Made by a program: the position numbers and the translations under genes
The notes under the pieces: model-generated
The model's input: only the letters and a program-made list of their open reading frames with translations
Told to the model about the DNA's origin: nothing
Database searches by the model: none
Shown here: positions 16,618-28,890 of the stretch, in pieces
How the letters are laid out: the number at the start of each line of letters is the position of its first letter
How positions within the stretch are numbered: position 1 is the first letter of the stretch
NCBI GenBank assembly: GCA_029262065.1
Contig: JAJDAC010000032.1
Coordinates: 1-44,392, forward strand
Reading direction: 5' to 3'
DNA: 44,392 nt
Source of the DNA: Candidatus Krumholzibacteriota bacterium
GTDB lineage: Bacteria; Krumholzibacteriota; Krumholzibacteriia; JAJRXK01

Positions 16618-17694
16618 TTAACGGCCGGCCCGCGCGAACATGACCAAGGCGGCGGTTCCGTAAAGCATGTTTCCACTCCAGGCCGAAACCCAGATGGGGA
16701 TCGCTCCGTTCTTGCCCAGCTGTAGGCCGAAGTTCATCAGCAGGTAGTACACGAAGGCCAATCCCACCGTCAGGCCGAAGCCGGCCCACAGCGTGGTTCG
16801 TTGTCGGCCCGCGCCCAGAGCCAGCCCCAGGAGCACGAATATCAGGTTCACCAGGGGGAAGCTCACCTTGTGAGCCAACGCGGCCAGGTAGGGCGTGGGG
16901 TCGCCGCCTGACCGTCGCACCCAGCCGGAGAAGCGGCGCAGCTCCTTGTAGCTCATTTCGTCCGGTTCCACCTGGCGTCGCGAAAAGTCCTTGGGTACAT
17001 CCACGGGCGGCTCCAGCTCGCGCTGGACGAACGATTGGACGTGTTCACCGTCGTCACGGAACTGACGGATGGCGCCGTTCGTGAACACCCAGTGATCCTC
17101 TTGCCATACCGCCTTCTCGGCGTCGATTCTCTGGACCATGGTGCTGTCGTTGAACGTCTGCACCGAGACGCCTTCAAGCGTCGGCGGGCGAGCGCGAAAG
17201 TATTTCACCACGTACACGCGGCCCGCTTCGCCGATGTAACTGAAGTTGCGCTTGCTCTTCAGGTCTTCGCGGGCACGGCCCTCGATCTCGTACTTGAACA
17301 CGTCGGTTTGTCGGGCGTTGGCCTCGGGTACCACGGTCTCGCGAAAGACCAGGGCCACCACCGATGCGAAGAGTCCGAATATCAGGATGGAGCGGCCGAC
17401 TCGGGGCAGGCTCAGGCCAGCCGACAGGATGGCCGCGTACTCGTTGTTCTTGCTGAGCACGCCCATGGTGAACAGGCTGGCCAACAACACCGAAACCGGA
17501 AACACCAGATCGATGATCATGGGTAGCTGATAGAAATAGTAGCGCGCGATCGAAAACGTCGTGGCGTTGTCGTCGAGGAAGTCATCGAGGTGATCGAACA
17601 GGTCCACCAACAGGAAAATGGAGATGAACGCCAACATCGACCAGCCCAGCGAGCGGATGAACGCGAAGAAGACGTGGCGGTCGATCAAGGTCAT
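16618..17694 (-). CDS. lptG: LPS export permease LptG (YjgP/YjgQ family)
   Basis: An inner-membrane permease of the LptB2FG exporter. Of the three tandem YjgP/YjgQ genes this is the LptG-like one: about 358 residues, with TLIDRHVFFAFIRSLGWSML at the N-terminus, a second membrane block containing FPVSVLLASLFTMGVLSKNN, a central periplasmic beta domain (VYVVKYFRARPPTLEGVSVQ), and C-terminal helices with HKVSFPLVNLIFVLLGLALG. ATG 17694 overlaps the stop of the upstream lptF-like gene by four bases (ATGA on the minus strand). The longer open frame to 17814 is overlap. ATPase (lptB) and bridge protein (lptC) genes are at 4502-5802. Confidence 0.9.
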   Translation of the reverse strand: MTLIDRHVFFAFIRSLGWSMLAFISIFLLVDLFDHLDDFLDDNATTFSIARYYFYQLPMIIDLVFPVSVLLASLFTMGVLSKNNEYAAILSAGLSLPRVGRSILIFGLFASVVALVFRETVVPEANARQTDVFKYEIEGRAREDLKSKRNFSYIGEAGRVYVVKYFRARPPTLEGVSVQTFNDSTMVQRIDAEKAVWQEDHWVFTNGAIRQFRDDGEHVQSFVQRELEPPVDVPKDFSRRQVEPDEMSYKELRRFSGWVRRSGGDPTPYLAALAHKVSFPLVNLIFVLLGLALGAGRQRTTLWAGFGLTVGLAFVYYLLMNFGLQLGKNGAIPIWVSAWSGNMLYGTAALVMFARAGR

Positions 17695-19043
17695 GGGCGT
17701 TCGCCAAGAAGCCGTCGCGGCTTCAGGTCCGAGAGGGTGAACACGCGGGTTTCTTGCGAGGATTGGTACATCAGCAACAACCCGGCGGTTCCGAGCAACA
17801 GGTTCGCAGCCCACATGGACACCCAGGGCTCCACCAGGCCCCGGTCGGAGAGCTTCTCGCCGCCGGTCAGGAACAGATAGTAGAGGAGAAAAGTGGCCAG
17901 TGACATCCCAATCGATACACCCTTGCCTCCGCGTGACGTGGCAATGGACAGCGGCACTCCCAACAACACGAAGACGATGCAGGCGATCGGGATCGAGAAC
18001 TTCTTGTGGAATTCCACGCCGAACTCGTTGGCCGCCACACGATGGTTGTGCGTTACCGCGGTCAGCAGGCCGAGGGCCCGAGCCTGCTGTTCCAGGTTGC
18101 TCAGGATGGCGCGGTACTCCGAGACCGCGGTGCGTCCAGGCTGAGCTAGGGACGGCAGGGAGACCTTATCGTAGACCGGGACGACCACTTCGCCCAGGAT
18201 CGTCAGCGCCGCCGATTGCTCGCCCTGGATCTCCTTCAGCTTTTTTCGCCGGGCATCCATGAGTTCGAGCACGTCCATTTCCCGTTCGCTTCGTTTCACG
18301 TTGAGGGCGGCGGTTTCGGGTCCGACGTCGATCGTGAAGCTCTGTCGTTCAAAGTCGGTCAGGTGGTACTTCGCCGGCTCGTTGGGGTCGGGCATGGCGT
18401 GGTGTTGCCCGTTGAACAGGTCCAGATGGATCTGATCGGCGGCGGTCGTGCTCAGTATCCCGTACTCGGCCACGATCACATCGGGGGCGGGGTCGCCCTT
18501 CTGCTCGCGCTGGTAGAGGATGACGTCGTCGATCCGACCCGTATCGTCGTCTTTCTCCCGCATGAACACCGTGAAGTGATCGTTGATCTCGGCAAACGTG
18601 TTTTCGCTGATCGTGAGCGCCGGTCGCATCCGATGGATCTCGATCAGGAGTGAGCGAAGGCGATGATTGCTTTCGGGTAGCACGAAGTGGTTGTAGGCCA
18701 TCATGCCTACCGCGATCAGCATGCCCGTGCATAGAAGTGGCGCGGCGATGCGGTACAGGCTCATGCCGGTCGCCTTGAGTGCGGTGATTTCGTTGTCGGC
18801 GGCCATGTGTCCCACCGCCATCAGGGTGCCCACCAGCATGGCCATGGGAATTGATAGCGCGAACGTGTGCCCCAGACTCAGCCACAGGACCTCCAGCGCC
18901 ATCACCGCGGGAATTCCCTTTTCCAGGAACAGGAAGATGTAGGTCTGCAGGACGTCAATCAGCAGGAGGAAGGTGGTGACGGATAGACCAAAGAAGAAGG
19001 GCGGGAAGAAGGTTCGAATGAGGTGGCGGGAAACGAGGCTCAT
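17691..19043 (-). CDS. lptF: LptF-like LPS export permease, copy 2
   Basis: A YjgP/YjgQ permease with SRHLIRTFFPPFFFGLSVTT at the N-terminus, GHTFALSIPMAMLVGTLMA and DNEITALKATGMSLYRIA in the first membrane block, and KKFSIPIACIVFVLLGVPLS and GGKGVSIGMSLATFLLYYLF in the last. At 450 residues it is much longer than E. coli LptF (366). The extra length is in the periplasmic part and includes a charged, helix-prone stretch at about residues 245-300 (KRSEREMDVLELMDARRKK onward). It is a close paralogue of the gene immediately upstream, with long identical blocks, and is translationally coupled to lptG. Whether it forms a separate exporter or replaces the other copy cannot be told from sequence. 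Confidence 0.9.
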   Translation of the reverse strand: MSLVSRHLIRTFFPPFFFGLSVTTFLLLIDVLQTYIFLFLEKGIPAVMALEVLWLSLGHTFALSIPMAMLVGTLMAVGHMAADNEITALKATGMSLYRIAAPLLCTGMLIAVGMMAYNHFVLPESNHRLRSLLIEIHRMRPALTISENTFAEINDHFTVFMREKDDDTGRIDDVILYQREQKGDPAPDVIVAEYGILSTTAADQIHLDLFNGQHHAMPDPNEPAKYHLTDFERQSFTIDVGPETAALNVKRSEREMDVLELMDARRKKLKEIQGEQSAALTILGEVVVPVYDKVSLPSLAQPGRTAVSEYRAILSNLEQQARALGLLTAVTHNHRVAANEFGVEFHKKFSIPIACIVFVLLGVPLSIATSRGGKGVSIGMSLATFLLYYLFLTGGEKLSDRGLVEPWVSMWAANLLLGTAGLLLMYQSSQETRVFTLSDLKPRRLLGERP

Positions 19044-19058
19044 GCGGTCCTCAGGCGG

Positions 19059-20453
19059 TCACTGGGTGTCCGTCGCCGGAACGGGATCTTGCGGTTCGCG
19101 CGGGCCACGGCGGAACGGCCACAGCCCGCGAAGGCTCGAGAGCGTAACCACCCGAGTCTCCTGCACCGACTGATACAGCAGGAACAGCCCCGACACGCCC
19201 AGGATGACATTGGCGGCCCACATCGATATCCAGGGCTCAAGCAGGCCACGATCGGACAGCTTCTCGCCGCCGGTCAGGAACAGGTAGTACACCAGGAACG
19301 TGGCCAGTGACATCCCCATGGACACGCCCTTGCCACCGCGCGCGGTGACGATGGACAGCGGCACTCCAAGCAGCACGAACACGATGCAAGCCACCGGGAT
19401 CGAGAACTTCTTGTGCAATTCCACGCCGAACTTGTTCGCGGCGACGCGGTAGTTCTCCACCACCGAGAACTTCACGTCGACCGATCGGGCGTGCCGCTCC
19501 ACCTTGTTCAGAATGGCGCGGTACTCCGAAACGGCCGTGCGCCCCGGCGGTGGCTCGGGCCGGTTGTCGGTAATCTCATCGTAGGCGGGCAACACCACCT
19601 CGCGCAGGATCGACAGGGCGGTAGCTCGCTCTTCGTTCATTTCGCCGATCTTCTCGGCCCGCGTGGCTTTCAGCTGCGACACGTTCATTTCCCGTTCGCC
19701 GCGCCTCACGCTGGCGGCTGGACTGTCGGGGCCCGTATCGATCGTGAACGTCTGCCGGCGGAAGTCGGTCAGGTGGTACTTCATGGGCTCGGTTGGGTCG
19801 GGCATGGAATGGTATTGACCATTGAACAGGTCCAGCTCGATGCGGTCGGTCGCGGTGCTGCGCAACATGCCGTACTCGGCCACGATGACGTCGGGAGCGG
19901 GATCACCCCGTTCCTCCCGCTTGTACAGGACTACATCGTCGATGCGCCCCGATTTGTCGTCCTTGGCCCGCATGAACACCGTGTAGTGCTCGTTGATCTC
20001 GGCGAAGGTGTTTTCCTTGATCGTCAGCGCCGGCCGCATGCGGTGGATTTCGGTCAGCAGGTTTCGTAGTCGATGGTTGCTTACCGGCAGCACGAAGTTG
20101 TTGTAGGCCATCATTCCAAGCGCAATCAGGGTGCCGGCGATCAGCAGCGGGCGGGCGATGCGGTACAGGCTCACGCCGGCGGCCTTCATGGCGGTGATCT
20201 CGTTGTCCGACGCCAGGTGCCCCATGGACATGAGCGTTCCGACCAGCACGGCCATTGGAATGGATAATGCAAAAGTGTGCCCGAGGCTGAGAAACAACAC
20301 CTCCGTCGCCACCCCAATGTGTATGCCCTTCTCCAAGAACAGATTGATGTAGCGCTCCAGTACATCGATCATCAGCAGGAAGGTCGTGACCGACAAACCG
20401 AAGAAGAAGGGCGGGATGAAAGTCCCGATGAGATGGCGTGGAATGAGTTTCAT
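19059..20453 (-). CDS. lptF: LptF-like LPS export permease, copy 1
   Basis: First gene of the minus-strand permease operon, 464 residues. It aligns end to end with the next gene: SLGHTFALSIPMAVLVGTLM, SDNEITAMKAAGVSLYRIA, LTIKENTFAEINEHYTVFMR, GDPAPDVIVAEYGML, FHKKFS-like LHKKFSIPVACIVFVLLGVP and SLATFLVYYLFLTGGEKLSD all recur with few changes. The periplasmic insert (RRGEREMNVSQLKATRAEK onward) and the C-terminal tail are the most divergent parts. The tail here ends in a Pro- and Arg-rich stretch. ATG 20453 has no strong Shine-Dalgarno. The intergenic gap to copy 2 is only 15 bases. It is divergent from sprA. Confidence 0.9.
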   Translation of the reverse strand: MKLIPRHLIGTFIPPFFFGLSVTTFLLMIDVLERYINLFLEKGIHIGVATEVLFLSLGHTFALSIPMAVLVGTLMSMGHLASDNEITAMKAAGVSLYRIARPLLIAGTLIALGMMAYNNFVLPVSNHRLRNLLTEIHRMRPALTIKENTFAEINEHYTVFMRAKDDKSGRIDDVVLYKREERGDPAPDVIVAEYGMLRSTATDRIELDLFNGQYHSMPDPTEPMKYHLTDFRRQTFTIDTGPDSPAASVRRGEREMNVSQLKATRAEKIGEMNEERATALSILREVVLPAYDEITDNRPEPPPGRTAVSEYRAILNKVERHARSVDVKFSVVENYRVAANKFGVELHKKFSIPVACIVFVLLGVPLSIVTARGGKGVSMGMSLATFLVYYLFLTGGEKLSDRGLLEPWISMWAANVILGVSGLFLLYQSVQETRVVTLSSLRGLWPFRRGPREPQDPVPATDTQ

Positions 20454-20745
20454 TCGTTCAAATACGGCGTTTCTGGTCAGGCGAGAGGGTGAGCGGCCAG
20501 TCTAGGTCCGGCGCTCTTTTTCTAACAGCCCATACTTAGGGTACGCCCCTTGTGGGGTTGCGTTCCCGGCTTCTCGGGGTTCGGTCGGCCGCCTTTCAGG
20601 CCGCGGTTGGGTGCGGTGCAGTGACCCACGGAGTGGTCACTTGTTGTCTCGTAAATGAGACAGTTCGGGGGGTCGGGCTCGGCGTGGTGGTGGCTTGCTT
20701 GAAGTCACCTCCCTGGGCTCTTGGAAGGAACGGGACGATCCGGGT
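20454..20745. promoter_or_regulatory. Divergent control region between the lpt permease operon and sprA
   Basis: These 292 bases contain no credible gene. An inverted repeat TGTCTC (20645-20650), 6 bases, GAGACA (20657-20662) sits about 85 bases before the sprA start and could be an operator or a small leader hairpin. A T-rich patch lies at 20515-20525. I found no convincing -35/-10 pair on either strand, although promoters for both operons must lie here or nearby. Confidence 0.4.
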
Positions 20746-23700
20746 GTGCGAACTCCAGCGCGGCTAGGTTTACTCATCTTGGCGCTCTCGCTCCTTTCGT
20801 CCGTAGCGGCGAACGGCGAGACCCTCGTACGACCGCGACTGCCTCAAGACGACCTTCTTCTCGATCTCATTCTCCGTACCACCGACGACCCCGACGTTCT
20901 GACTGCGCGTCAGAGTGCCCTGCGTCAAAAGCTGATCGAAGCGGGGGTGGATCCCCGGGGTGAGCGACGGCGCATCACGCTGCAGACGCTCCTGGAACAC
21001 CAGTTCAATAGCCGCGCCGGCTACGAGCCCTCGGCGCCGGCTCGGCAGCAGGATGTGGTCGAGGCCGATTGGCCGGCGGGGCTGGTGCACCGTTTCCGCT
21101 ACCCGATGTCGCACCTCTTTTTCACCGACGTGGACAGCAATAGGGTGGGCATTGCATTCAAGCAGGCCCGCGACATGGCCGACTCCTCGCTATCGGTCGA
21201 TCTGACCTCGGTCGACGCGTGGATCCGGAGCGCGTCGGCCATCGGCCTACGCAGCCAGTGGCGCACCCAGCTCAAGAATCGCCAGAGTAGCCAGGATCAG
21301 CGCCGTGACCTGCTGAACTTCACTCTGCCCATCCGACTGCCGCGCACGCTCGAACGCATCATTGGGCGCGGCGACGCCACCAACATCCGTATCAGCGGGC
21401 AGGAGACCATCTCGATCAGTGGCGAGTCGACCGTGCGCGACGATTCGTTCCTGGGCAACGAGATCAACCAAAGCCGTAGCTTGTTTCCCAGCTTGGAGAT
21501 GAAACAGTCGCTTCGGGTCTCGCTCGATGGTCAGGTGGGCGAGAAGATCAAGGTCACGGTAACCCACGACAGTGAGGCCATCGGCACCGAGTCGACTGAG
21601 GTAAAGCTGGCCTTTGAGGGCGACGAGGACGACATCATCCAGGTGATCCGCGCCGGCAACATCGACGTGACGTTGCCGGGCTCGCGGCTACTGGGCGTGC
21701 GGGCCAGCCAGGGCGGTCTGTTCGGTATCAAGATCGAGGGTGCGGTGGGTCGCCTGGAGTACGTACTGGTGACCAGCAAGGAACAGAGTCAGCAGAACCG
21801 GGCCACGTTCAACCAGTCGGGGGGGTCGGCGCAGGAATTCCGGATTTCGTCGGTGGACTACATCCGCAACAAGTTCTTTCGACTGACGGCCCCGGTCCCG
21901 TTCTTCTTTCGCGATGAAAACCTGGCCGACCAAAGCGGGCTGTGGTTGACGCCCGTGGAGCAGGGGGGGCTGGGTTATCGGATCGATCCGGACACGGTGG
22001 AACTCTACCGTAGTGATCGCAGCGGGGGCACCTTCGACGAAAACACGGTGGGATGGGGAATTGCCTTCGTCGACCGAACCGGTCGCGGCTTCGGGGCCGA
22101 GAACAACCCCGATGGTGTACCCGCGGTGGGTACCCCTGGACTCGCATCGGAACGATGGCGGCGTCTGGAGCGCAATTCCGATTGGGATGTGCTCGTGCAG
22201 GGTGACGGCACGATCATCGGCTTCGAACTGTTGACGAACATCGACGACCGTCTCGACATCCTGGCGTGTTCCTACAATATCGTCGATGCCAACGGCGTCA
22301 TCGTGAAGCAGGTGGGGCGCGCCGCGTTCGATAGCGATCCCCAGATTCCCAACCAGTACTCCCTGGGGGCCGAGGACCAGGAAGTGTATTTCTTCAAGAT
22401 GCTCAAGCCTCGCGATCAGGAAGCTCCGTTTGCTCCGCCGGACAGAGTCGAGGGCGAGTTCGATATCACGTGGGAATACATGTTCCGAAACTTCTACGAC
22501 CTGAAGGGAAGTGACATCGACCAGGGCACCTTTCAGATGCGGATCGAACGTTCTCTTCAGGCCCTGGAGAATCCCGAGTTCGATACCGAGAATGGCAATT
22601 CGGGTCCACTGGGATTCATTCCGTGGATTCAGACGTTTGGGCTGGATCAGCTGGATCTGACCGGCGCGCAGAACTCCGAACCCGATGGGCAGCCCGACGT
22701 TTTTGATCAGGTGTTGTTCAACCTGCAGCGCGGTTATGTACAGTTTCCTTCGCCCACGCCGTTCGACATGACGCAGGCAGAGCTCGATTTCTTCTCGGGC
22801 ATAAACGGATATGCGTTCCGCGTCGATCCCACCCCCATGGTCGAGGCGGACGACGACCTTCCGCTCAATACGCCCACCTTGTATCGGAATGTACTTACTT
22901 CACAGCAGCAGACCGATCTGCGTCGATTCGAACTGGTGGCCACGCACACGTCTACCAGCAGCCGTTTCCGGCTGAACGCGTTCAACATCAAGCAGGATTC
23001 CGAAGAGGTCACGCTGAACGGGCAGATACTGACGCGCGGCACGGACTACGACATCGACTACTTCTCCGGTGAGATCAATCTGACGGGCGCGGCCAATCGA
23101 CTGAATGCCCAGAGCAACATCAACATAACGTACGAGGTAGATCCCCTGTTCGGTGGCGGTCGTACCAGCCTGCATGGGATCTACCTGGGATACGATCTTG
23201 GACTCCGAAAGTCGATCACCACCACCTGGCTGTTGCAGAGCAAGCCCAATCCATCGAAGAAGCCTCGCCTGGGCGAAGAGCCCAGTCGTAACTGGGTCGG
23301 CAATGTCGCCACCAAGTTGGCGTTCTCGCCGGGCCTGCTGCGGCGCATGGTGAATCTACTGCCGTTGGTGGACTCGGAAGATCCCGCCAACGTCAATCTG
23401 GACGCGGAGCTGGCCGTGTCCGTTCCCAACCCCAATACGTTGGGCGATGCGTACCTGGAAGACTTCGAGGCCGCCGACGAGAGTATTACCATCCCCATGT
23501 CGCGTGATGGATGGTTCTGGTCGAGTATCCCGGCGATCTACGAAGAGGGGACCAGCGATCGCGCGTTCACACCGGCCGAGCGCGCCTACGCCGGTTGGCA
23601 CCGTCCCGTACCAGGCGTGAAGCGCGAGGAACTGAACCCGGATCTATCGGCGCAGGAGCGCCGCGACGTTCTTCCGTCGTTGGAGCTACGCGTTGAGTCG

Positions 23701-26700
23701 GGTGACCCCGTGCAGTGGCAACAAGGCGAGTTTGCCGGGATCATCCGTGGCTTCGGCGGCGAGCTGGATCTCAGCGAGTCGCAGTTCCTGGAATTCTGGG
23801 TCAACGATTTCACGGGCGATGGCAACGACCTTCTCGCGGCGCGTGAGGGTGTGATCCACTTCGATTTCGGCAACATCAACGAAGACTTCTGGTGGCCCAG
23901 AACCGACGACATCGACGCGGTAGACGGTTACGAGTTGCGCACCTGGCAGCGCGAAGATCGCGACAACGACAATCGGTTGGGCTCGCCGCAGGATCCCGAG
24001 ACCGGACTGTTCACCACCGAAGATACGGGCCTGGACGGCCTGATTGACGCGGCCGAAGGCGATCCTCAGTTCCCGCAGCGTCCCCGTCTGGGCAATGACC
24101 GGGCCGGCGACAATTTCGACTCCGAGGAGGAACCGTTTCCCGGGGCGGCACAGTTCCTCTACATCAACGGTACCGAGCTGAATCAGAAGCTCGATTCCGA
24201 GGATCTCAACCGCAATGGCGTGCTCGATCTGAGCGATGGGTACTTCACTCTCGAGTTCAAACTGGACGACATGGACGTGGTCCAACAGTTCGTGCAAGGC
24301 GATAGCCTGCGGTCATACCGCAAGGTGCGCCTGGACATGCGCAAGGCCGTGGCCGTGTCGGCCCAAACGGGTGATTCCTACGGATACCGGTCGGCCAACC
24401 CCGACCTGTCGCGTGTCCGCTATTTTCGCATGTGGTACGAAAATCCCGATGGGATTCAGCGGGCACGCGAACGCCGGTTCATCTTCACCGAAATGCGTTT
24501 CCTGGGCAGTCGCTGGATCGACGACGAGTTGCGGGATCTGAACGACAACATCCTGATGCGCACGGCGAGCGAGGACTTCAGCGTGGGCGTCCTCAACAAC
24601 AAGGACGACCAGGACGTCTACGTGCCCGCGGTGTTCCCCGACACGCGAAACAACGTGGCCGCGAAGGAACAGGCCCTGCAGCTCATCTACAACGATCTTC
24701 AGCCTGGGCACCAGATCCGTGTACGAAGACAGGTGCCTGGCCAAGGCCAGGATTTCAGCGTCTACGGCGAGTTGAATTTCTTCTGGCGAGCCCCACCCGA
24801 TGGCGGGCGGTGTGGGCCCGACGACGTTCCCTGTGCATTGGATCTCGAGCAACAGCAATTGGAACCGTTCTATTGGGTCGGTTCCGACAGCAACAACTAC
24901 TACGAGATTTCCTTCCCGTTCTCCGAGATGGATCTGTCTTCGGCGCTATGGCAGGAGTGCCGCGTTGACCTGGGAGAGATGACCAACGTCAAGGTGAACG
25001 GCGTGGAAGAGCCGCTGAGTCCAGGCAGCGGCGTCCTGGTGCGTCGCGGCGACGTGGTGGATCGACTCACGGGAGAGATCTACAACATCACCGTGCGTGG
25101 TCGACCAGACCTGCGTCGCGTGACCACCTACTATGCCGGCGTGCGCAACCCGTTCGGCGTGACGAGCGGTGGCGTACCCGTGGGTCGTCCCGTCACGGGC
25201 GAGGTCCTGTTCAATGAAATCCGACTGAAGGAAGTCGATCGCAACACCGGATTCGCCAAGCGCGTGGCCATGAATGCCAACGTCCCTGGCTTCGGTGACT
25301 TTGGCGTGGACTGGAGCGAAACCGACGGGGCGTTCCGTGGCTTGAATCAGCCGGTAGGAAGTCGGGCTCTGCGCCGCGATTGGAATGCCCGGGCCAGTTC
25401 GAGTCTGGAGCACTTCGTGCCCCTGTTTGGTCTGGAGGTTCCGTTCTCGCTCTCGACGCGGCGTAGCAAGACCCTGCCCGACTTTCTCACCCAGAGCGAC
25501 GTGGAGTTGTTGACCGACCTGGATCGTGACAACGAAAAATCCGAGGACAAGTCGGACACGTTCAACTTCCAGGTGAGAAAGCGGCCCGGCGAAAACAAGT
25601 GGCTGCAGTACACCCTCGACCGACTTTCCTACAGCCTCAGTGGCACCCGAAGTACGCGCGACACGCCGCGCCTCATGGAGAACCAGCGCAGTGCCAACAC
25701 CAAGGTGAACTACGACGTGCGGTTGGGTCGTGGCGCGACGGTGAAGATTCCCTTTACGAAGACCACCATTCGCTATCTGCCCAATCAGCTCACCCTGGGC
25801 ACCAATTGGCAGTACAACTTCACCGAGCGTACGGATCGCATTTCCACCAGCTCCGGATTTGAAGATCGCGTGCAACCGGCCCAGGAGGTGAGGACCAACA
25901 ACAACACCATGACGCTCAGCTACAACCCGGTGCAGAACATCCGCACCAGCTACAGCTCCACGTCGAATCGAGATATCCAGACGCAGCGCGAAGATCGTCT
26001 TCGGTTGCTGGGGCTCGATTGGGGTTCGGAGAAGCGATTCAGCGAGCGCGTGAGTGTGAACTACACGCCGGACATTGGCCTCATCAAGTGGCTCGAGCCC
26101 GACGTTACCTACAGCGCAACCTACTCCGAGGATCGTCAGCCGCGCCGGCAATCCTACGCCGGGCTGTTCGATGAGGATGGCCTCGAACCGATCGAGATCG
26201 ACGGCGTACAGGACGGGTTCGTCGGTATAGAGGGTGACGTGCGACACGTCAGCAACAGCAACGATCTGAGTTTGCGGGGAAAGATCAACCTCGTGGGCTG
26301 GCTCAAGCGGTGGTCTGACAATCGGGCGCGGAATCAGCCGCCGCCAACTACCCGTCCCGTCACGCCCCCGGGCCGGGCTCGCCCGCGCGGCGTGGTACCC
26401 CCGGTAGTCGCGCCGACGGATACGACGTCGACTGCGGAGCTGGAGGACCTGGCGCAAGGCGAAGAAGAGGACGACGCCAGTTTCCAATTGCGGGTGCGAC
26501 AGCAACTGCGCGAACGGGCGCTGCAGGCACGGGAACGATCGGCTGACGAGCCCGGCGGAGGCGTGGTGCTTCCGGACGCCTTGGCGCAGGACCAGGATCC
26601 TGCAGAGCAAGCCGAAGACGAACGAGGCCGGGACGAAGAGGAAGACGGTGAGGCCGATGACTCGGCCGATGGTGAGGTGGACAGCGAGGCCGGCGAAGTC

Positions 26701-27723
26701 GAGGAGCCCGAGCCGACGTTGGATGTCGGAGCGGCCCTGCTCGGTGTGGTGAAACCCTTCTGGAACATGGTGGTGAATCTGAAGCCGATCAGCGGCACCT
26801 ACCAGGTCCAGAACCGCAGTGGATACCAACACGTGCGCGGTCGCAGTGGTTGGCTCTACCGATTGGGTGTCAGCAAGGACTTCGACGCTGAACCGGTGAT
26901 ACTTCGCTTCGACGACCCCGACGATCTGAACGGAGATGGTGATCTGGAGCCCGTGTTCCAGGACTTCAGTACCAGCAACCTGCAAAAGACCGAGCGGTTG
27001 AACCTATCCACCCAGACCGATCTCTCCGACGACATGCGGTTGGACCTTACGTTCGCGGCCACCCGTGGTAACCGAGGTGGAACCCAGGCCAACAGTCGCG
27101 ATTACTCCACGGAGTGGCCGTCGGCGACGCTTCGCGTCAGCCGTGTCCACGAGTGGGGCATCTTCGGTGACATGTTCAGCAGCAGTACGATCGACGTGAA
27201 TTATCGGCGCACCAGGAGCGCCAACGGCGTCACCGCCCAGACCGAAAATCCCAAGACGGCCGTGCAGATCGGACCGCGTTGGACGTTCCGATTGCAGAAT
27301 GGCCTGGATGCCAACGTGTCGGTGCGGTGGAATCGCGACATATCCGAGACGCCGGTGAACGAGCTGCGGCAGGGTAGATTCTCCACCACGCTTGGTGTTC
27401 AGAAGAACTTCGACGCCGACGGATTCCTCAGTTTCCTTCGTTTTGGCAAGAAGGGGACGGGCACCACGATCGACATGCGGGTGGACGCAACGTACGATCG
27501 TTCCTCACGCGAGCGGTTCACCTTTGCCACCAATACGCGCCCGGAGTTCACCGACCAGCAGAGTGGCCGCACGAGCCTTCGCGTAGCCCCCAACTTCAGC
27601 TACCAGTTCAGTCGGAACCTTCGGGCCGGCCTGCAGTTGAATTTCAATCGGTCGAAGGACATCGCCAACGACCAGGTGACCACGAGTTTCGGGTTGGGAT
27701 TCAATGCAACACTTACGTTCTGA
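20746..27723 (+). CDS. sprA: SprA/Sov-type giant outer-membrane protein (type IX secretion translocon family)
   Basis: A protein of about 2325 residues in the SprA/Sov family. In Bacteroidota SprA is the 36-strand outer-membrane barrel through which T9SS cargo passes. GTG 20746 gives a basic N-terminus, a hydrophobic core and a signal cleavage region near VAANGE; TTG 20695 is an alternative. Family landmarks are LRVSLDGQVGEKIKVTVTHD, EGDEDDIIQVIRAGNID, LFGIKIEGAVGRLEYV (all about residues 250-345) and a repeated such block, LGDAYLEDFEAADESITI with RDGWFWSS (about residue 910), and a C-terminal half dominated by amphipathic beta strands ending in GLGFNATLTF. Asp/Asn-rich loops resembling calcium sites occur (DLNRNGVLDLSDG, DLNGDGDLEPV). 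A Pro-rich then acidic linker is encoded at about 26330-26720. No other T9SS gene is in the window. It overlaps the next gene by 20 bases. Confidence 0.9.
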   Translation: MRTPARLGLLILALSLLSSVAANGETLVRPRLPQDDLLLDLILRTTDDPDVLTARQSALRQKLIEAGVDPRGERRRITLQTLLEHQFNSRAGYEPSAPARQQDVVEADWPAGLVHRFRYPMSHLFFTDVDSNRVGIAFKQARDMADSSLSVDLTSVDAWIRSASAIGLRSQWRTQLKNRQSSQDQRRDLLNFTLPIRLPRTLERIIGRGDATNIRISGQETISISGESTVRDDSFLGNEINQSRSLFPSLEMKQSLRVSLDGQVGEKIKVTVTHDSEAIGTESTEVKLAFEGDEDDIIQVIRAGNIDVTLPGSRLLGVRASQGGLFGIKIEGAVGRLEYVLVTSKEQSQQNRATFNQSGGSAQEFRISSVDYIRNKFFRLTAPVPFFFRDENLADQSGLWLTPVEQGGLGYRIDPDTVELYRSDRSGGTFDENTVGWGIAFVDRTGRGFGAENNPDGVPAVGTPGLASERWRRLERNSDWDVLVQGDGTIIGFELLTNIDDRLDILACSYNIVDANGVIVKQVGRAAFDSDPQIPNQYSLGAEDQEVYFFKMLKPRDQEAPFAPPDRVEGEFDITWEYMFRNFYDLKGSDIDQGTFQMRIERSLQALENPEFDTENGNSGPLGFIPWIQTFGLDQLDLTGAQNSEPDGQPDVFDQVLFNLQRGYVQFPSPTPFDMTQAELDFFSGINGYAFRVDPTPMVEADDDLPLNTPTLYRNVLTSQQQTDLRRFELVATHTSTSSRFRLNAFNIKQDSEEVTLNGQILTRGTDYDIDYFSGEINLTGAANRLNAQSNINITYEVDPLFGGGRTSLHGIYLGYDLGLRKSITTTWLLQSKPNPSKKPRLGEEPSRNWVGNVATKLAFSPGLLRRMVNLLPLVDSEDPANVNLDAELAVSVPNPNTLGDAYLEDFEAADESITIPMSRDGWFWSSIPAIYEEGTSDRAFTPAERAYAGWHRPVPGVKREELNPDLSAQERRDVLPSLELRVESGDPVQWQQGEFAGIIRGFGGELDLSESQFLEFWVNDFTGDGNDLLAAREGVIHFDFGNINEDFWWPRTDDIDAVDGYELRTWQREDRDNDNRLGSPQDPETGLFTTEDTGLDGLIDAAEGDPQFPQRPRLGNDRAGDNFDSEEEPFPGAAQFLYINGTELNQKLDSEDLNRNGVLDLSDGYFTLEFKLDDMDVVQQFVQGDSLRSYRKVRLDMRKAVAVSAQTGDSYGYRSANPDLSRVRYFRMWYENPDGIQRARERRFIFTEMRFLGSRWIDDELRDLNDNILMRTASEDFSVGVLNNKDDQDVYVPAVFPDTRNNVAAKEQALQLIYNDLQPGHQIRVRRQVPGQGQDFSVYGELNFFWRAPPDGGRCGPDDVPCALDLEQQQLEPFYWVGSDSNNYYEISFPFSEMDLSSALWQECRVDLGEMTNVKVNGVEEPLSPGSGVLVRRGDVVDRLTGEIYNITVRGRPDLRRVTTYYAGVRNPFGVTSGGVPVGRPVTGEVLFNEIRLKEVDRNTGFAKRVAMNANVPGFGDFGVDWSETDGAFRGLNQPVGSRALRRDWNARASSSLEHFVPLFGLEVPFSLSTRRSKTLPDFLTQSDVELLTDLDRDNEKSEDKSDTFNFQVRKRPGENKWLQYTLDRLSYSLSGTRSTRDTPRLMENQRSANTKVNYDVRLGRGATVKIPFTKTTIRYLPNQLTLGTNWQYNFTERTDRISTSSGFEDRVQPAQEVRTNNNTMTLSYNPVQNIRTSYSSTSNRDIQTQREDRLRLLGLDWGSEKRFSERVSVNYTPDIGLIKWLEPDVTYSATYSEDRQPRRQSYAGLFDEDGLEPIEIDGVQDGFVGIEGDVRHVSNSNDLSLRGKINLVGWLKRWSDNRARNQPPPTTRPVTPPGRARPRGVVPPVVAPTDTTSTAELEDLAQGEEEDDASFQLRVRQQLRERALQARERSADEPGGGVVLPDALAQDQDPAEQAEDERGRDEEEDGEADDSADGEVDSEAGEVEEPEPTLDVGAALLGVVKPFWNMVVNLKPISGTYQVQNRSGYQHVRGRSGWLYRLGVSKDFDAEPVILRFDDPDDLNGDGDLEPVFQDFSTSNLQKTERLNLSTQTDLSDDMRLDLTFAATRGNRGGTQANSRDYSTEWPSATLRVSRVHEWGIFGDMFSSSTIDVNYRRTRSANGVTAQTENPKTAVQIGPRWTFRLQNGLDANVSVRWNRDISETPVNELRQGRFSTTLGVQKNFDADGFLSFLRFGKKGTGTTIDMRVDATYDRSSRERFTFATNTRPEFTDQQSGRTSLRVAPNFSYQFSRNLRAGLQLNFNRSKDIANDQVTTSFGLGFNATLTF

Positions 27724-28648
27724 TCGCTTCCGGTCGTGGTCGACGGCGATTGCCTGCGGTGTGGTCCTGGGGGCTGCCTTGGGTCGCCCCGCGGACGCAA
27801 CCGGCCAGGTTATTCCTTCCTTCGACGGAGCCCGGGCGTTTGAGCTGCTCGAGAAACAGGTCGAATTCGGCCCCCGCGTTCCCGGCACGCCGGCTCACGC
27901 CCAGGCCATCGATTGGTATGAGGGCTTCCTGCGCTCAGCCGGGGCCTCGGTGGCCCGGCACTCGTTCACGGTGCCCAATCCGCGCGGCGGCGAGCCGCTG
28001 GCTCTGACCAACGTCTGGGCCTCCTTCGCACCCCAGGCCAGCGCCCGCGTGGCTCTGGCCGCCCACTTCGATTGCCGGCCGGTGGCCGACATGCAGCCCG
28101 GCGGTGAGGTGGCTCAGGGCATCCCGGGCGCCAACGATGGCGCCAGCGGGGTGGCCGTGCTTCTGGCCCTGGCCGAGATCTTCTCGACCAATCCGCCCCC
28201 GGTGGGCGTTGACCTCCTGCTGTTCGATGGCGAGGACCACGGCGTCGAGGGCGAACCGCTCACCTACAGTCTGGGGTCGCAGCGGTTCGTCAGTGATCAT
28301 CCGCAGTTCCGGCCACGAGCTCTCATTCTACTCGACATGGTAGGGGACGCCGATCTGCGCATCCCCATGGAGCAGAACAGCCTTGAGCGGGCGCCTCAGC
28401 TGGCCGCCATGGTGTTCCAGCGGGCTGAGTCCCTGGGGCTGGGGGCTCTCGAGATGGCGCCCGGCCGGTCGGTCATGGATGACCACATTCCATTCCTGCG
28501 CGCGGGCATCCCCGCCATCGACCTGATCGACATGGATTACGAGTACTGGCACACCCTGGAGGACACTCCGGACAAGTGTTCGGCCGCCAGTCTCGAAGAG
28601 ATCGGCAGCCTTCTGCTGGCTCTCCTGTTTCTGGACTTTGCGCATTAG
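27704..28648 (+). CDS. Secreted glutaminyl-peptide cyclotransferase-like M28 enzyme
   Basis: This 314-residue M28-fold protein resembles glutaminyl cyclase, which converts N-terminal Gln to pyroglutamate, more than a peptidase. Evidence is DDHIPFLRAGIP (259-270), nearly the animal and bacterial glutaminyl cyclase motif, and WHT (282-284). The expected single-zinc set is Asp145 (GANDGASG), Asp178 (FDGED) and His283, with Glu177 as general base and Asp211 (LLDMVGD) and Asp260 in the active site. An N-terminal signal peptide ends near ADATG, and a cut there would leave Gln as residue one. The ATG lies inside sprA, 20 bases before its end, so the two are probably co-transcribed. An aminopeptidase role cannot be excluded without assay. 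Confidence 0.85.
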   Translation: MQHLRSDRFRSWSTAIACGVVLGAALGRPADATGQVIPSFDGARAFELLEKQVEFGPRVPGTPAHAQAIDWYEGFLRSAGASVARHSFTVPNPRGGEPLALTNVWASFAPQASARVALAAHFDCRPVADMQPGGEVAQGIPGANDGASGVAVLLALAEIFSTNPPPVGVDLLLFDGEDHGVEGEPLTYSLGSQRFVSDHPQFRPRALILLDMVGDADLRIPMEQNSLERAPQLAAMVFQRAESLGLGALEMAPGRSVMDDHIPFLRAGIPAIDLIDMDYEYWHTLEDTPDKCSAASLEEIGSLLLALLFLDFAH

Positions 28649-28785: not shown

Positions 28786-28807
28786 ACAGGGCTGGGTAGG
28801 GCTGGGA

Positions 28808-28836
28808 AGTGGGCGGGAGCGTCCACTTTTTTTCTT
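28808..28836 (+). terminator. Strong intrinsic terminator (or attenuator) upstream of rimP-nusA
   Basis: AGTGGGCG (28808-28815) pairs with CGTCCACT (28820-28827) around a GGAG tetraloop: eight pairs with one wobble, followed by seven Ts (28827-28833) and CTT. It is 160 bases after the glutaminyl cyclase stop and about 58 bases before the rimP start. It may simply end the sprA operon, or act as an attenuator for the nusA operon. The rest of the 28649-28890 gap contains G-rich sequence with no credible gene. Confidence 0.85.
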
Positions 28837-28890
28837 GTCCGCCGAGCCAACCGGCCAGCTCGTGTGCCGGCGCAGGCTGTTCTTTCCGAG

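What the first reader, a model, noticed from the sequence alone, without database searches (positions are those of the whole stretch)
20746..28648. sprA overlaps a secreted glutaminyl-cyclase gene: a translocon paired with an N-terminal modifier
Seen: the 314-residue M28-fold enzyme starts 20 bases inside the sprA 3' end, carries the cyclase-type DDHIPFL and WHT motifs with a single-zinc residue set, and has a signal peptide that could leave Gln at +1 after cleavage (ADATG then Q). Known: Bacteroidota, many with SprA-based type IX secretion, show a bias for Gln after signal peptidase I sites (the 'Q-rule'), and their glutaminyl cyclase forms pyroglutamate. Inference: here the two functions are genetically fused into one operon, which suggests that the cyclase works on SprA cargo or on SprA itself, and that the Q-rule extends to this lineage.
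Basis: partly seen in the sequence, partly recalled or inferred. Interest (0 to 1): 0.75.

Follow-up and report, generated by a model that had tools for sequence, protein, structure and literature searches.

The report
Secretion pore linked to glutaminyl cyclase

Summary
sprA (20746-27723) and an M28-fold gene (27704-28648) overlap by 20 bases on one strand. The second encodes a type II glutaminyl cyclase (QC): nearest solved relatives are P. gingivalis, T. forsythia and B. theta QC, catalytic residues are intact, and M28 aminopeptidases branch outside.

The adjacency is not local. sprA lies directly upstream of QC in nearly all testable members of the window's class (probably Krumholzibacteriia) and in Neomarinimicrobiota, Zixibacteria, Gemmatimonadota, Calditrichota, KSB1 and Eisenbacteria (45 of 80 loci), while flanking genes differ between phyla. 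In some Neomarinimicrobiota a PorV-family gene follows in the same cluster. The window's genome has PorU, PorV and at least 150 type IX sorting domains. I found no published report of the pair.

The Q-rule claim is only partly supported. Gln leads at +1 in this genome (22%, against 9% in negative controls and 35% in Prevotella with one crude predictor), but not in two other QC-bearing class members. Three of the four near-complete members lacking QC next to sprA carry an unrelated type I QC, which suggests the activity is under selection.

Whether QC serves the secretion system or only shares its operon is undecided. No activity was measured.

The parts
20746..27723 (+). sprA/sov: type IX secretion outer-membrane translocon (2325 aa from the GTG start; open frame from TTG 20695)
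   Evidence: TIGR04189 equivalog 523 bits, cut-off 200; SprA_N; signal peptide VRTPARLGLLILALSLLSSVAA
27704..28648 (+). type II (animal-type) glutaminyl cyclase, 314 aa, M28 fold
   Evidence: PF04389; PgQC/TfQC best PDB matches; AF2 pLDDT 91.9, TM 0.88-0.91 to bacteroidal QCs; catalytic residues invariant in 15 orthologues; M28 aminopeptidases outside
27704..27723 (+). 20-nt overlap of sprA 3' end and QC 5' end, consistent with translational coupling
   Evidence: direct reading; SprA and QC frames touch or overlap in most class loci
27704..27805 (+). N-terminal export signal of QC (residues 1-34; likely cut after ADA or ATG); several orthologues have a lipobox Cys instead
   Evidence: sequence; alignment; low-confidence N-terminus in the model
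28136..28141 (+). QC Asp145-Gly146 (zinc ligand Asp and the following Gly, as PgQC Asp149-Gly150)
   Evidence: alignment with PgQC; PMC7948796
28232..28237 (+). QC Glu177 (general base) and Asp178 (zinc ligand; the Asp typical of bacterial QCs)
28478..28498 (+). QC DDHIPFL motif, residues 259-265
   Evidence: invariant DDH in 15 orthologues
28547..28555 (+). QC Trp282-His283-Thr284 (His zinc ligand; Trp, where aminopeptidases have Tyr)
28804..28837 (+). possible intrinsic terminator after QC and ahead of rimP; not above chance
   Evidence: scan: 1 found, 1.5 expected

Best explanation
A two-gene operon. SprA is the outer-membrane pore of a type IX-like secretion system. The QC, translated in tandem from the overlap, is exported to the periplasm, where it turns N-terminal Gln, exposed by signal peptidase I on newly exported proteins, into pyroglutamate. 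Type IX cargo on its way to SprA would be a prominent part of its substrates. The likely benefit, by analogy with P. gingivalis, is protection of those proteins from aminopeptidases, not a sorting signal. The pair is old: it is kept across several phyla, was separated in Bacteroidota, and in some relatives the QC was lost from the spot where a type I QC is present elsewhere in the genome. Shown: gene identities, overlap, conserved linkage, type IX cargo and partners in the genome, partial Gln excess. Inferred: enzymatic activity, periplasmic site, substrates, benefit, and that the linkage is ancestral.
For: QC identity. Linkage: 60 of 80 QC genomes have the SprA match ending within 5 kb upstream on the same strand; 27 of 29 class loci have the SprA C-terminus directly upstream; 45 of 80 named loci, most in other phyla. 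Neighbours differ by phylum: rimP-nusA, PrmA, HHH, DUF4097 downstream; Ham1, MurB or divergent LptF upstream. A PorV-family gene follows in two Neomarinimicrobiota clusters annotated; its homology cluster covers 16 loci in 3 phyla. Type IX partners in the window's genome: PorU 490 bits immediately followed by a PorV-family gene, at least 150 TIGR04183 domains. Gln is the commonest +1 residue in the genome sample, 35/157; sorting-domain proteins have AxA|Q in 17/31 against 34/148 others. Type I QC in 3 of 4 class genomes at least 90% complete that lack type II, against 4 of 44 that have it.
Against: The Gln excess is about two thirds of the Bacteroidota control and only p=0.03 above negative controls. 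QC-bearing G044 and G026 show none. The cargo-versus-other contrast is inflated because 'other' includes membrane anchors. QC occurs without adjacent SprA in Poribacteria, Planctomycetota, Fibrobacterota and Armatimonadota, and SprA without QC of either type in G082, G086 and G108. P. gingivalis mutants argue against a role in type IX secretion (PMC5837995).
Confidence: 0.55

Rival explanations
1. General envelope QC in a shared operon. QC cyclises any Gln-starting exported protein and has no special tie to type IX cargo; linkage to sprA is kept because both are envelope functions needed at the same time.
For: In Bacteroidetes Gln enrichment is not compartment-specific and QC acts on signal-peptidase I substrates at large (PMC5837995, PMC10653852). 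Many non-cargo proteins in this genome also carry AxA|Q. QC exists without adjacent SprA elsewhere.
Against: Flanking genes turned over between phyla while this one pair stayed together; in some phyla PorV-family genes join the cluster. Shared timing alone rarely keeps a single pair so long (inference).
Confidence: 0.33
2. QC modifies a small fixed set of substrates, such as a type IX component, so that linkage persists even in members without bulk Gln bias.
For: Adjacency is kept in G044 and G026, which show no bulk Gln excess. SprA itself is predicted to start with Gln in 6 of the 19 orthologues with a called signal peptide.
Against: The window's SprA is not predicted to start with Gln; most other orthologues do not; no invariant Gln-starting partner was identified.
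Confidence: 0.1
3. The protein is an M28 aminopeptidase, not a QC.
For: Bacteroidal QCs were themselves first annotated as leucine aminopeptidases; the fold is shared.
Against: Best matches are biochemically verified QCs; D-G after the zinc Asp, E-D pair, WH motif and R-P-x-x-D loop follow QCs; own M28 paralogues fall outside with 98% support.
Confidence: 0.05

Closest known systems
Type II glutaminyl cyclases of Bacteroidales (PgQC PG2157, TfQC, BtQC)
   Same: Fold (TM 0.88-0.91), 33-36% identity, catalytic Glu, zinc ligands Asp/Asp/His, WH motif, R-P-x-x-D loop; export signal (lipobox in several relatives, as in PgQC)
   Different: Encoded next to sprA; PgQC lies in an operon with PG2158 and hemG (PMC10653852) and the Bacteroides QC lies by a SufE gene. 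PgTrp193 is Tyr188 here and the loop holding PgPhe294 is shorter
Bacteroidetes Q-rule (Bochtler 2018; mBio 2023)
   Same: Gln is the commonest residue after signal-peptidase I sites in the window's genome, and in Neomarinimicrobiota at control level
   Different: Only partial in this genome and absent in some QC-bearing class members; published as exclusive to Bacteroidetes in 2023, although the 2018 paper lists high values elsewhere (Ignavibacterium album 77%)
Type IX secretion system (SprA/Sov, PorV, PorU, sorting-domain cargo)
   Same: SprA, PorU and PorV-family above curated cut-offs; at least 150 type A sorting-domain matches
   Different: GldL motor protein not detected (the search had no positive control); QC as fixed gene neighbour of sprA is not a described feature in the papers found
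Type I (plant-type) glutaminyl cyclases, PF05096
   Same: Same reaction; appears in class members lacking type II QC, as the two types divide Bacteroidetes
   Different: Unrelated beta-propeller fold, absent from the window's genome

Membership tests
Type II glutaminyl cyclase | M28-type alpha/beta fold | tested here: met
   PF04389 E 1.9e-30; AF2 model pLDDT 91.9, nearest solved structures are QCs or bacteroidal entries since reassigned as QCs
Type II glutaminyl cyclase | Catalytic Glu and zinc ligands Asp, Glu/Asp, His | tested here: met
   E177, D145, D178, H283 aligned to PgQC Glu182, Asp149, Asp183, His299; invariant in 15 orthologues
Type II glutaminyl cyclase | Trp before the zinc His and no Asn/Asp after the zinc Asp, unlike aminopeptidases | tested here: met
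   W282-H283; D145-G146
Type II glutaminyl cyclase | Groups with QCs and not with M28 aminopeptidases | tested here: met
   Tree of 99 proteins, split 98%; long branches on the aminopeptidases
Type II glutaminyl cyclase | Single zinc and cyclase activity | not testable with these tools
   needs purified protein
Bacteroidal QC subgroup | PgTrp193 lining the pocket | tested here: not met
   Tyr188 at the aligned position; so not filed in the bacteroidal subgroup, only in type II QC
Bacteroidal QC subgroup | PgArg128-Pro129-x-x-Asp132 loop | tested here: met
   R125-P126-V-A-D129
Type IX secretion system | SprA/Sov translocon | tested here: met
   523 bits against 200
Type IX secretion system | PorV and PorU | tested here: met
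   PorU NF033707 490 bits against 420; PorV-family NF033709, 11 matches, one directly after PorU
Type IX secretion system | C-terminal sorting domain on cargo | tested here: met
Type IX secretion system | GldL/GldM motor | tested here: inconclusive
   GldL: no match, but the model matched in no control genome either; GldM not tested
Bacteroidetes-type Q-rule | Most signal-peptidase I substrates have Gln at +1 | tested here: inconclusive
   22% in the window's genome against 35% Prevotella and 9% negative controls with one crude predictor
Bacteroidetes-type Q-rule | Holds across the window's class | tested here: not met
   G015 14%, G026 9%, G044 0%

The most novel reading that the evidence does not exclude
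The sprA-QC operon is the ancestral arrangement in the FCB group, and the QC is a dedicated maturation factor of the type IX pathway: N-terminal pyroglutamate on cargo or on a type IX component matters for secretion or surface stability. The general Q-rule of Bacteroidota would then be a later spread of that function after the genes were separated.
Probability: 0.3. Interest if true: 0.82.

Novelty: new variant of a known kind. Interest (0 to 1): 0.6.

Why it matters
Earlier work saw type IX secretion and the Q-rule co-occur and, from P. gingivalis mutants, argued against a mechanistic link. A gene pair kept across at least seven phyla, with neighbours replaced around it, is independent evidence of some functional tie and names organisms in which to test it. 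It also argues against calling pyroglutamate capping of exported proteins exclusive to Bacteroidetes, and it gives a natural experiment: relatives in which the type II enzyme is gone from the sprA locus and a type I enzyme is present.

Tried and rejected
Aminopeptidase reading: rejected on residues, fold and tree. QC self-capping via ATG|Q: possible, but ADA|T is the better site, and several orthologues are lipoproteins. QC acting on SprA's own N-terminus in this genome: not supported (predicted +1 is Asn; 6 Gln among 19 called orthologues). G010 and G012 as QC-free controls for the Q-rule: I used them first, then withdrew them when type I QC turned up in both; the comparison (p=0.0015) should not be used as QC+ versus QC-. 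Larger conserved translation operon carrying both genes along: rejected, since rimP-nusA follow only in the window's group and its nearest neighbours. GldL search gave nothing anywhere and says nothing. E. coli as negative control yielded too few signal peptides to pursue; megaplasmids of Cupriavidus and Sinorhizobium were used. The first signal-peptide script mis-called genes in a 71% GC genome and was corrected. A first QC alignment had two rows on the wrong strand and was redone.

Full report
OBSERVATION. The sprA frame runs 20695-27723 on the + strand, with a GTG at 20746 ahead of a good signal peptide. The next frame, 27704-28648, has one plausible ATG start, so the genes overlap by exactly 20 bases. 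SprA scores 523 bits against TIGR04189, cut-off 200. Upstream, on the other strand, lies an LptF/LptG gene; downstream are rimP and nusA.

IS IT A CYCLASE? The 314-residue protein matches Peptidase_M28. Its nearest solved relatives by sequence are the glutaminyl cyclases of P. gingivalis and T. forsythia, E about 1e-42. A model from 15 orthologues has mean pLDDT 91.9; its closest PDB folds are bacteroidal QCs, TM-score to target 0.88-0.91, rmsd 1.5-1.9 for most. Residues that separate QCs from aminopeptidases according to PMC7948796 are mostly present: Asp145-Gly146, Glu177-Asp178, Trp282-His283, Arg125-Pro126-x-x-Asp129. The Asp at 178 replaces the animal Glu, as in about 90% of Bacteroidetes QCs (PMC5837995). 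One subgroup residue differs: PgTrp193 is Tyr188. In a tree of 99 proteins the window's own M28 aminopeptidase paralogues fall outside all QCs with 98% support, though on long branches.

CONSERVED ADJACENCY. In 118 related and random genomes, 80 QC places were compared with SprA places: 60 have a SprA match ending within 5 kb upstream on the same strand, and many of the rest are on contigs with no listed SprA match. Read directly, 27 of 29 loci (28 of them from the class) have the SprA C-terminus immediately upstream; the two exceptions, from one family, have a gap between the genes. In named genomes, 45 of 80 loci have sprA directly upstream: Neomarinimicrobiota 20 of 20, Zixibacteria 5 of 5, Gemmatimonadota 6 of 9, Calditrichota 4 of 6, KSB1 2 of 2 testable, Eisenbacteria 2 of 2, Krumholzibacteriia 1 of 1; none in Poribacteria, Fibrobacterota, Planctomycetota, Armatimonadota or Acidobacteriota. 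These loci were the 80 closest matches to the window's QC under two short patterns, so they are not a random sample. Adjacent loci are clustered on the QC tree but need several gains or losses (16 changes, shuffled mean 32). Neighbours differ: PrmA in Neomarinimicrobiota, KSB1 and Calditrichota, HHH in Gemmatimonadota, DUF4097 in Zixibacteria, rimP-nusA in the window's group. In Neomarinimicrobiota loci L109 and L150 a PorV-family protein above cut-off follows in the cluster, next to a propeller protein with a FlgD/sorting-type C-terminus; its homology cluster covers 16 loci in three phyla. The class is inferred to be Krumholzibacteriia because a so-titled record groups with the class members.

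TYPE IX CONTEXT. The window's genome holds PorU (490 bits, cut-off 420) followed 218 bases later by a PorV-family match, 11 PorV-family matches in all, and at least 150 TIGR04183 sorting domains. GldL was not found, but that search had no positive control.

Q-RULE. I wrote a simple signal-peptide predictor whose only use of +1 is to exclude Pro. With it: window's genome 35 of 157 Gln (22%; mature-region Gln 3.9%), Prevotella 19 of 55 (35%), pooled negative controls 5 of 53 (9%), Neomarinimicrobiota 15 of 43 (35%), Gemmatimonadota 4 of 15, Poribacteria 1 of 11, and class members G015 9 of 64, G026 3 of 35, G044 0 of 23, G010 5 of 70, G012 4 of 43. Against negative controls the window's genome gives p=0.027 and Neomarinimicrobiota p=0.0024. 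Proteins with a sorting domain have AxA|Q in 17 of 31 cases against 34 of 148 others, a contrast inflated by membrane anchors among the others. So there is a Gln excess here, it is partial, and it is not class-wide. The predictor undercounts: Prevotella should be above 48% by the published figures for Bacteroidetes.

LOSS AND REPLACEMENT. G010, G012 and G017 have SprA but no type II QC. In G010 rimP and nusA follow sprA directly; in G012 rimP and nusA lie at the sprA locus and no QC was called between. All three carry a type I QC elsewhere. Among class genomes at least 90% complete, type I is present in 3 of 4 lacking type II and 4 of 44 having it, p=0.008; among those at least 95% complete, 3 of 3 and 1 of 19. 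Relatedness is not corrected for; G010 and G017 share a family. This mirrors the split of QC types in Bacteroidetes and suggests that the activity is needed.

COMPARISON WITH THE LITERATURE. Bochtler 2018 (PMC5837995) defined the Q-rule, noted co-occurrence with type IX secretion and argued against a mechanistic link from P. gingivalis mutants; the 2023 study (PMC10653852) calls it exclusive to Bacteroidetes and gives protein stability as its role. Neither mentions sprA. Searches for QC with SprA or gene neighbourhood, and for Krumholzibacteria with type IX secretion, found no description of the pair; the library lacks most subscription papers and 'SprA' also matches 'spray', so absence is not proof.

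VERDICT. The mechanism 'cyclase works on SprA cargo' is plausible and undecided against 'general envelope cyclase in a shared operon'.

Noticed in passing
G010:C538:657696-658421, G012:C14:49776-50474, G017:C1:2903-3628: Type I (plant-type) QC, PF05096, in class members that lack the type II QC next to sprA: apparent non-orthologous replacement.
   Followed up: yes
L109:9950-15318 and L150:9917-15303: In Neomarinimicrobiota sprA and QC are followed by a propeller protein with a FlgD/sorting-type C-terminus and a PorV-family protein: a possible extended type IX cluster.
   Followed up: partly
L116:9260-12849 (also L124, L129): In Poribacteria the QC sits after recR and, in L116, before mnmG/gidA, with no adjacent sprA; Gln bias there looks low.
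   Followed up: partly
window 17691-20453 (- strand): An LptF/LptG gene (and the next frame, probably its partner) is divergent from sprA; LptF is also divergent from sprA in Gemmatimonadota locus L182.
   Followed up: partly
   Followed up: no
window 24946-26985 (- strand): A 679-aa open frame antisense to sprA; judged a high-GC artefact.
   Followed up: no
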